Positions 15,010-15,025 of a DNA stretch of 45,381 nucleotides are shown piece by piece. The notes under the pieces are model-generated. The model did not search any database, was not told the origin of the DNA, and was given only the letters and a program-made list of their open reading frames with translations. Position 1 is the first letter of the stretch. Every line of letters starts with the position of its first letter. The stretch comes from Phycisphaerales bacterium. Its GTDB lineage: Bacteria > Planctomycetota > Phycisphaerae > Phycisphaerales > SM1A02. The translations under genes were made by a program, and so were the position numbers. Location: NCBI GenBank assembly GCA_022446945.1, contig JAKVBW010000002.1:2759-48139 (forward strand). Direction: 5' to 3'.

Positions 15010-15025
15010 GCAAGCGGCGTGCCAA
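15010..15025 (-). promoter_or_regulatory. sigma-54 (RpoN) promoter element upstream of groEL1
   Basis: Minus strand reads TTGGCACGCCGCTTGC followed by G. The published sigma-54 consensus is YTGGCACG-N4-TTGCW: every fixed base of both the -24 (TTGGCACG) and -12 (TTGC) blocks is present with the exact 4-base spacing, and only the final W is G. It lies 78-93 bases before the groEL1 ATG, in the right orientation. I found no CIRCE inverted repeat (TTAGCACTC-N9-GAGTGCTAA) in this spacer, so HrcA control is not suggested. A sigma-54 promoter would require an enhancer-binding ATPase encoded elsewhere. Confidence 0.65.

What the first reader, a model, noticed from the sequence alone, without database searches (positions are those of the whole stretch)
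15010..15025. Near-consensus sigma-54 promoter in front of the groEL1-groES-groEL2-dnaJ-grpE series
Minus strand carries TTGGCACG-CCGC-TTGC, matching every fixed base of the -24/-12 consensus with exact spacing, 78-93 bases before groEL1. Most bacterial chaperonin operons are under HrcA/CIRCE or sigma-32, and neither type is visible here. RpoN control of chaperonins is known only in scattered cases such as a Bradyrhizobium groESL copy. It would tie the main folding operon to an enhancer-binding activator and some specific signal.
Basis: partly seen in the sequence, partly recalled or inferred. Interest (0 to 1): 0.62.

Follow-up and report, generated by a model that had tools for sequence, protein, structure and literature searches.

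The report
Sigma-54 enhancer-driven chaperone operon promoter
In this marine planctomycete and its relatives, the main protein-folding (heat-shock) genes appear to be switched on by the activator-dependent sigma-54 machinery, through a conserved promoter and a conserved upstream palindrome, and not by either of the two usual bacterial heat-shock controls.

Summary
TTGGCACGCCGCTTGC lies at 15010-15025 (minus), 78 nt before groEL1. The organism belongs to a Phycisphaerales-like order of Planctomycetota. Its genome and 38 of 41 genomes searched have rpoN. Within the genus the fixed -24/-12 bases are invariant (2.0 bits) while the flanks are not (about 0.5-0.6 bits). Across the order, 26 of 30 groEL1 upstream regions keep a near-consensus site (1.9 expected by shuffling). 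The same palindrome-plus-sigma-54 pair stands before dnaK (28/29) and clpB (18/28), and in this genome also before clpC and hsp20. It is absent from the groEL3 paralogue (0/20). HrcA is missing from the order (0/41) and nearly from the phylum (1/149, weak); no genome has an RpoH above cut-off. One orphan response-regulator-type activator, next to murC, is conserved in 38/41 genomes. Best reading: a sigma-54 heat-shock regulon. A 2025 paper already predicted sigma-54 promoters on planctomycete chaperone genes; I found no report of the enhancer or candidate activator. Nothing has been tested at the bench.

The parts
15010..15025 (-). Sigma-54 -24/-12 promoter element TTGGCACGCCGCTTGC; the predicted transcription start is about 12 nt downstream (near 14997)
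   Evidence: conserved in genus and order
15105..15119 (.). Palindrome CTGCCA-ACC-TGGCAG, the proposed enhancer (UAS), 95 nt upstream of the -24 TGGC; it lies inside the last codons of the upstream gene
   Evidence: only exact copy in the 2.17-Mb assembly
13226..14932 (-). groEL1, first gene of the operon (568 aa, Gly-Gly-Met tail)
   Evidence: Pfam Cpn60 E=2e-77; orthologue in the relatives
12847..13134 (-). groES
   Evidence: Pfam Cpn10 E=1e-31
11197..12810 (-). groEL2
   Evidence: Pfam Cpn60 E=2e-74
9968..11116 (-). dnaJ
   Evidence: Pfam DnaJ, DnaJ_C and DnaJ_CXXCXGXG
9369..9953 (-). grpE
   Evidence: Pfam GrpE E=3e-32; gaps between the operon genes are 14-91 nt
15076..16044 (-). Upstream gene of unknown family (322 aa); its 3' end carries the palindrome
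   Evidence: no Pfam match

Best explanation
The 16 bases are a true sigma-54 promoter that drives the groEL1-groES-groEL2-dnaJ-grpE operon. RNA polymerase with sigma-54 would wait there in a closed complex. A dimeric bacterial enhancer-binding protein would bind the palindrome CTGCCA-N3-TGGCAG about 95 nt further up, loop to the promoter and use ATP to open it. The same palindrome-promoter pair precedes dnaK and clpB, and in this genome clpC and hsp20, so it defines a sigma-54 heat-shock (protein-quality) regulon in a lineage without HrcA and without a recognisable RpoH. The most likely activator is the orphan REC-AAA+-Fis response regulator encoded next to murC. Shown here by computation: promoter, palindrome, shared architecture, conservation, presence of rpoN and of the activator orthologue in relatives, absence of HrcA. 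Inferred: that the palindrome is bound by this activator, that the signal is unfolded-protein or heat stress, and that the start site is near 14997.
For: rpoN is in 38/41 genomes and in G000 with all three Pfam domains. Genus groEL1 promoters: core 2.00 bits against flanks of 0.50 and 0.64. Order-wide, sigma-54 sites with at most 1 mismatch: groEL1 26/30, dnaK 29/29, clpB 22/28 (shuffles 1.9, 1.9, 1.8). Palindromes: 28/30, 29/29, 24/28 (shuffles 0.55, 0.55, 0.73). Both in the right order: 25/30, 28/29, 18/28 (shuffles 0.01 or less). groEL3 control: 0/20 on both. All 63 near-consensus sigma-54 sites of G000 were examined; 7 have a palindrome upstream, and the 5 that precede genes are groEL1, dnaK, clpB, clpC and hsp20. 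HrcA 0/41 and 1/149; RpoH over cut-off 0/41. Activator orthologue in 38/41 at 56-100% identity, next paralogue at most 44%, with phosphorylatable receiver, GAFTGA and Fis-type HTH. Seven genus members have only this canonical activator. Palindrome-promoter distances cluster near the helical repeat for dnaK (p=0.002; weaker for the others). In Rhodopirellula baltica, heat induces the same gene set (PMC2754498).
Against: No expression or binding data for this lineage. The activator gene is missing from the window's own assembly (91% complete); the collinear contig ends about 11 kb short of where relatives have it. G013 has sigma-54 sites at groEL1, dnaK and clpB but no palindrome near them, although its activator HTH is intact. 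G009 and G024 lack both elements at clpB. clpC is poorly conserved (joint 3/20). The exact palindrome occurs about as often per genome as its reversed control, so its placement, not its count, is the evidence. In R. baltica rpoN itself was not heat-regulated.
Confidence: 0.8

Rival explanations
1. The sigma-54 promoter is real, but the palindrome is the operator of another regulator (for example a repressor that took HrcA's place), and a different activator or none at a fixed site works the promoter.
For: Palindromes of this length are also typical repressor operators. G013 keeps the promoters without the palindrome. The activator-palindrome link rests on co-occurrence and elimination.
Against: The palindrome sits about 45-180 nt upstream of the -24 box, too far for simple occlusion, and its distances to the dnaK promoter follow the helical repeat. 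It is paired with sigma-54 sites and absent from groEL3.
Confidence: 0.15
2. The activator is not the murC-linked protein but a divergent sigma-54-activator-like AAA+ protein (weak match, E about 1e-27 in G000) or another unassembled activator.
For: G000's best PF00158 match is only 1.4e-27 and could not be identified with the searches left; ClpB (4.8e-9) and the window MoxR gene (0.002) do not account for it.
Against: The murC-linked protein is the only canonical activator in 7 genus genomes and is near-universal in the order. In G000 and G006 the collinear contigs end before its locus.
Confidence: 0.15
3. The site is a chance or minor element, and the operon is mainly transcribed by a sigma-70-family factor, for example the divergent RpoH-like paralogues.
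For: Divergent sigma-70 paralogues match TIGR02392 at about 130-165 bits, below its 323-bit cut-off, in all genomes. With 2 mismatches the motif is at chance level in the window.
Against: Conservation of the core against the flanks, order-wide recurrence at three unlinked heat-shock genes, none at groEL3, and no sigma-70-like promoter in the gap.
Confidence: 0.04

Closest known systems
Predicted sigma-54 promoters of GroEL/GroES/DnaK/DnaJ/GrpE COGs in Planctomycetota and Bacteroidota (Carrera-Reyna et al. 2025, PMC12316311)
   Same: Same sigma factor, same gene classes, same phylum (mainly Planctomycetia, fewer Phycisphaerae).
   Different: That text does not mention palindromes or upstream activating sequences and, in the passages read, names no activator for the chaperone genes. 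Here the two-part architecture, the shared regulon, the candidate activator and the HrcA absence are added.
Bradyrhizobium japonicum groESL3 under sigma-54/NifA (recalled, not read here)
   Same: Chaperonin operon with a -24/-12 promoter and an upstream activator site.
   Different: There it is one of several copies and tied to nitrogen fixation; here it is the main operon plus dnaK and clpB, with another palindrome and another activator.
[quoted passage not shown]
   Same: PVC relative whose dnaK operon has a sigma-54 promoter and an NtrC-type activator.
   Different: Chlamydia keeps HrcA/CIRCE as the main heat-shock control; here HrcA is absent.
Rhodopirellula baltica heat-shock genes RB8966-RB8974, dnaK, clpB, hsp20 (PMC2754498)
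   Same: Gene numbers and products match the same operon, and all were induced by heat.
   Different: No promoter or regulator was assigned; rpoN transcript was unchanged by heat.

Membership tests
Sigma-54-dependent promoter | TGGC and TTGC boxes with exact spacing (TGGCACG-N4-TTGC) | tested here: met
Sigma-54-dependent promoter | rpoN in the genome with AID, CBD, DBD and RpoN box | tested here: met
Sigma-54-dependent promoter | Core conserved above flanks in relatives | tested here: met
Sigma-54-dependent promoter | Transcription start about 12 nt after TTGC, lost in an rpoN mutant | not testable with these tools
   No expression data for this lineage
bEBP-activated (enhancer) operon | Dyad enhancer about 50-200 nt upstream of the promoter | tested here: met
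bEBP-activated (enhancer) operon | Activator with GAFTGA AAA+ and HTH in the same genome | tested here: inconclusive
   Present in 38/41 genomes including 7 genus members; absent from the incomplete G000 assembly
bEBP-activated (enhancer) operon | Activator binds the palindrome | not testable with these tools
   Needs a binding assay
HrcA/CIRCE regulon | hrcA gene | tested here: not met
   0/41 relatives; 1/149 in phylum, weak
HrcA/CIRCE regulon | CIRCE TTAGCACTC-N9-GAGTGCTAA upstream | tested here: not met
   Best 5 or more mismatches of 18
Sigma-32 (RpoH) regulon | RpoH at curated cut-off | tested here: not met
   0/41 over cut-off; divergent sigma-70 paralogues only

The most novel reading that the evidence does not exclude
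Planctomycetota run their core heat-shock regulon (groEL operon, dnaK, clpB, with clpC and hsp20 in some) through sigma-54 and one dedicated orphan NtrC-type response regulator bound to CTGCCA-N3-TGGCAG enhancers. This positive, enhancer-dependent heat-shock switch would stand in for both HrcA and RpoH across the phylum.
Probability: 0.55. Interest if true: 0.76.

Novelty: new variant of a known kind. Interest (0 to 1): 0.62.

Why it matters
Bacterial heat-shock control is usually taught as sigma-32 activation or HrcA-type repression. A phylum whose main chaperones depend on an ATP-driven, enhancer-bound sigma-54 activator would be a third main solution. It would show how an essential folding operon can sit behind a promoter that is silent without its activator, and it gives the murC-linked orphan regulator a testable function. 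It also makes 'what is the heat-shock signal in planctomycetes?' directly testable.

Tried and rejected
HrcA/CIRCE: rejected. RpoH: no member over cut-off, not fully excluded because divergent sigma paralogues exist. sigma-70-like promoter in the gap: none. Chance match: rejected by conservation and shuffles. Regulon by a spaced pattern (TGGCAG-N68-98-GGCRY-N5-TTGC): groEL1 and dnaK recur, most other hits do not. Autoregulation of the activator: no palindrome or sigma-54 site before its gene. MoxR-like AAA+ gene at 16118-17053 as the activator: rejected, AAA_3 family. GroEL3 as a further target: rejected, 0/20. Paper search for the palindrome gave nothing relevant.

Full report
Observation. 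The minus strand at 15025-15010 reads TTGGCACGCCGCTTGC. It is the only exact TGGCACG-N4-TTGC of the window, where shuffles give 0.025. With two mismatches allowed the motif is at chance (20 against 17.5), so one sequence alone would be weak evidence. groEL1 starts at 14932 with MAVKELAFD behind a GGAGA box. The longer ORF that begins at 15037 merely reads through the promoter. Pfam confirms groEL1, groES, groEL2, dnaJ and grpE with gaps of 14-91 nt. No sigma-70-like promoter is found in the gap.

Setting. The window is part of a 2.17-Mb, 91%-complete assembly. The nearest named genomes encoding groEL1 are marine Phycisphaerales MAGs at 77-82% identity, so the organism is a planctomycete of a Phycisphaerales-like order. 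rpoN is present in it with all three sigma-54 domains and an RpoN box ARRTVVKYR, and in 38 of 41 genomes searched.

Conservation of the promoter. I took the 350 nt before groEL1 from 30 genomes. In seven genus members the TGGC and TTGC bases are invariant (2.00 bits) while the flanks average 0.50 and 0.64 bits; most read TTTGGCGCGCCAGTTGCGG or nearly so. Over the order 26 of 30 carry a site with at most one mismatch to TGGCRY-N5-TTGC, against 1.9 in shuffles. The site also appears before groEL in several named Planctomycetia, such as Thalassoglobus neptunius and Blastopirellula marina.

A second element. Upstream of the promoter lies a 15-bp palindrome, CTGCCA-N3-TGGCAG, in 28 of 30 regions (shuffles 0.55), and in many other Planctomycetota with at most one mismatch. 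In the window it is CTGCCAACCTGGCAG at 15105-15119, 95 nt above the -24 box and inside the last codons of the upstream gene. It is the only exact copy in the assembly. The exact motif is not rarer than its reversed control genome by genome (about one per genome), so the argument rests on where it sits. In seven genus genomes the groEL1 site is the only exact copy; an eighth has one more. In three other genomes a further exact copy stands before clpB.

A shared regulon. The same pair precedes dnaK (both elements in order in 28 of 29) and clpB (18 of 28), with shuffles at or below 0.01. The groEL3 paralogue serves as a control and has neither element in 20 of 20. I then examined all 63 sites of the window's genome within one mismatch of TGGCACG-N4-TTGC (25 for the reversed control). 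Seven have a palindrome with at most one mismatch within 220 nt upstream. Two of these lie inside reading frames; the other five precede groEL1, dnaK, clpB, clpC and hsp20. In Rhodopirellula baltica, heat induces GroEL, Cpn10, Cpn60, DnaJ, GrpE, DnaK, ClpB and Hsp20, with rpoN transcript unchanged (PMC2754498), which fits control through activator activity.

What is missing. HrcA is absent from all 41 genomes and, apart from one weak match, from 149 genomes drawn across the phylum. CIRCE is absent. No RpoH passes its cut-off, although divergent sigma-70 paralogues of about 300 aa exist, so a further sigma factor cannot be excluded as an extra input.

Candidate activator. In seven genus genomes PF00158 finds exactly one canonical activator (E near 1e-69). 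It is a 460-aa protein with a receiver domain (conserved Asp, Thr, Lys), a GAFTGA AAA+ domain and a Fis-type HTH, encoded divergently from murC-murB-ddl; no histidine kinase was recognised among its immediate neighbours. Its orthologue is in 38 of 41 genomes at 56-100% identity, with the next paralogue at 44% or less over its length. A second activator in several relatives sits among flagellar genes. The window's own assembly and G006 lack the orthologue. Their contigs carrying the neighbouring groEL3 region are collinear with a relative and end about 11 kb and 2 kb before the place where it lies, so an assembly gap is likely but not shown. A divergent PF00158-like protein (E about 1e-27) in the window's genome could not be identified.

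Mechanism. The most likely reading is sigma-54 polymerase held at -24/-12 and opened by an ATP-driven activator bound to the palindrome. Distances between palindrome and dnaK promoter fall near multiples of the helical repeat (jitter p=0.002 for unique distances; 0.05 for groEL1 and clpB), as looping on one face of the helix would give. The weak points are G013, which has the promoters without the palindrome, two genomes without either element at clpB, and the absence of any bench data.

Comparison. A 2025 survey predicted sigma-54 promoters to be enriched for GroEL, GroES, DnaK, DnaJ, GrpE and small heat-shock protein COGs in Planctomycetota and Bacteroidota (PMC12316311). The sigma-54 half is therefore a published prediction at phylum level. 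That text mentions no upstream activating sequence or palindrome, and I found no other report of the palindrome; many subscription papers, including the Pirellula activator survey cited by others, were not readable. I class it as a new variant of a known kind.

Noticed in passing
L115:3815-3870 (Candidatus Omnitrophota, groEL upstream): A CIRCE-like repeat (TTGGCACTC-N9-GAGTGCTAA) runs straight into a sigma-54-like site (GTGGCATACCGCTTGCAC), suggesting double control of groEL by HrcA and sigma-54 in that lineage.
   Followed up: no
G013 (L370, L371, L372, L376): This genome keeps sigma-54 sites at groEL1, dnaK and clpB but has no palindrome near them, though its murC-linked activator has an intact HTH; it has an exact palindrome before clpC.
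   Followed up: partly
G000, unlisted place: A divergent PF00158-like protein (E about 1e-27) in the window's genome, and one of similar strength in G006, that is neither ClpB nor the window MoxR gene; identity unknown.
   Followed up: partly
L197, L198, L204, L206 and others: An NtrC-type orphan response regulator is conserved divergently from murC-murB-ddl (peptidoglycan synthesis) across the family; the reason for the link with cell-wall genes is unknown.
   Followed up: partly
window 15076-16044 (-): 322-aa upstream gene with CxxC-type cysteine pairs near the N-terminus and hydrophobic stretches, no Pfam match; its last codons carry the enhancer palindrome.
   Followed up: no
window 16118-17053 (+): MoxR-type AAA+ ATPase (AAA_3, E=1e-61) close to the chaperone operon on the other strand.
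   Followed up: partly
G000:C24:5614-7194 (L368): Third, unlinked groEL paralogue without sigma-54 or palindrome elements, so the copies appear to be regulated differently.
   Followed up: yes
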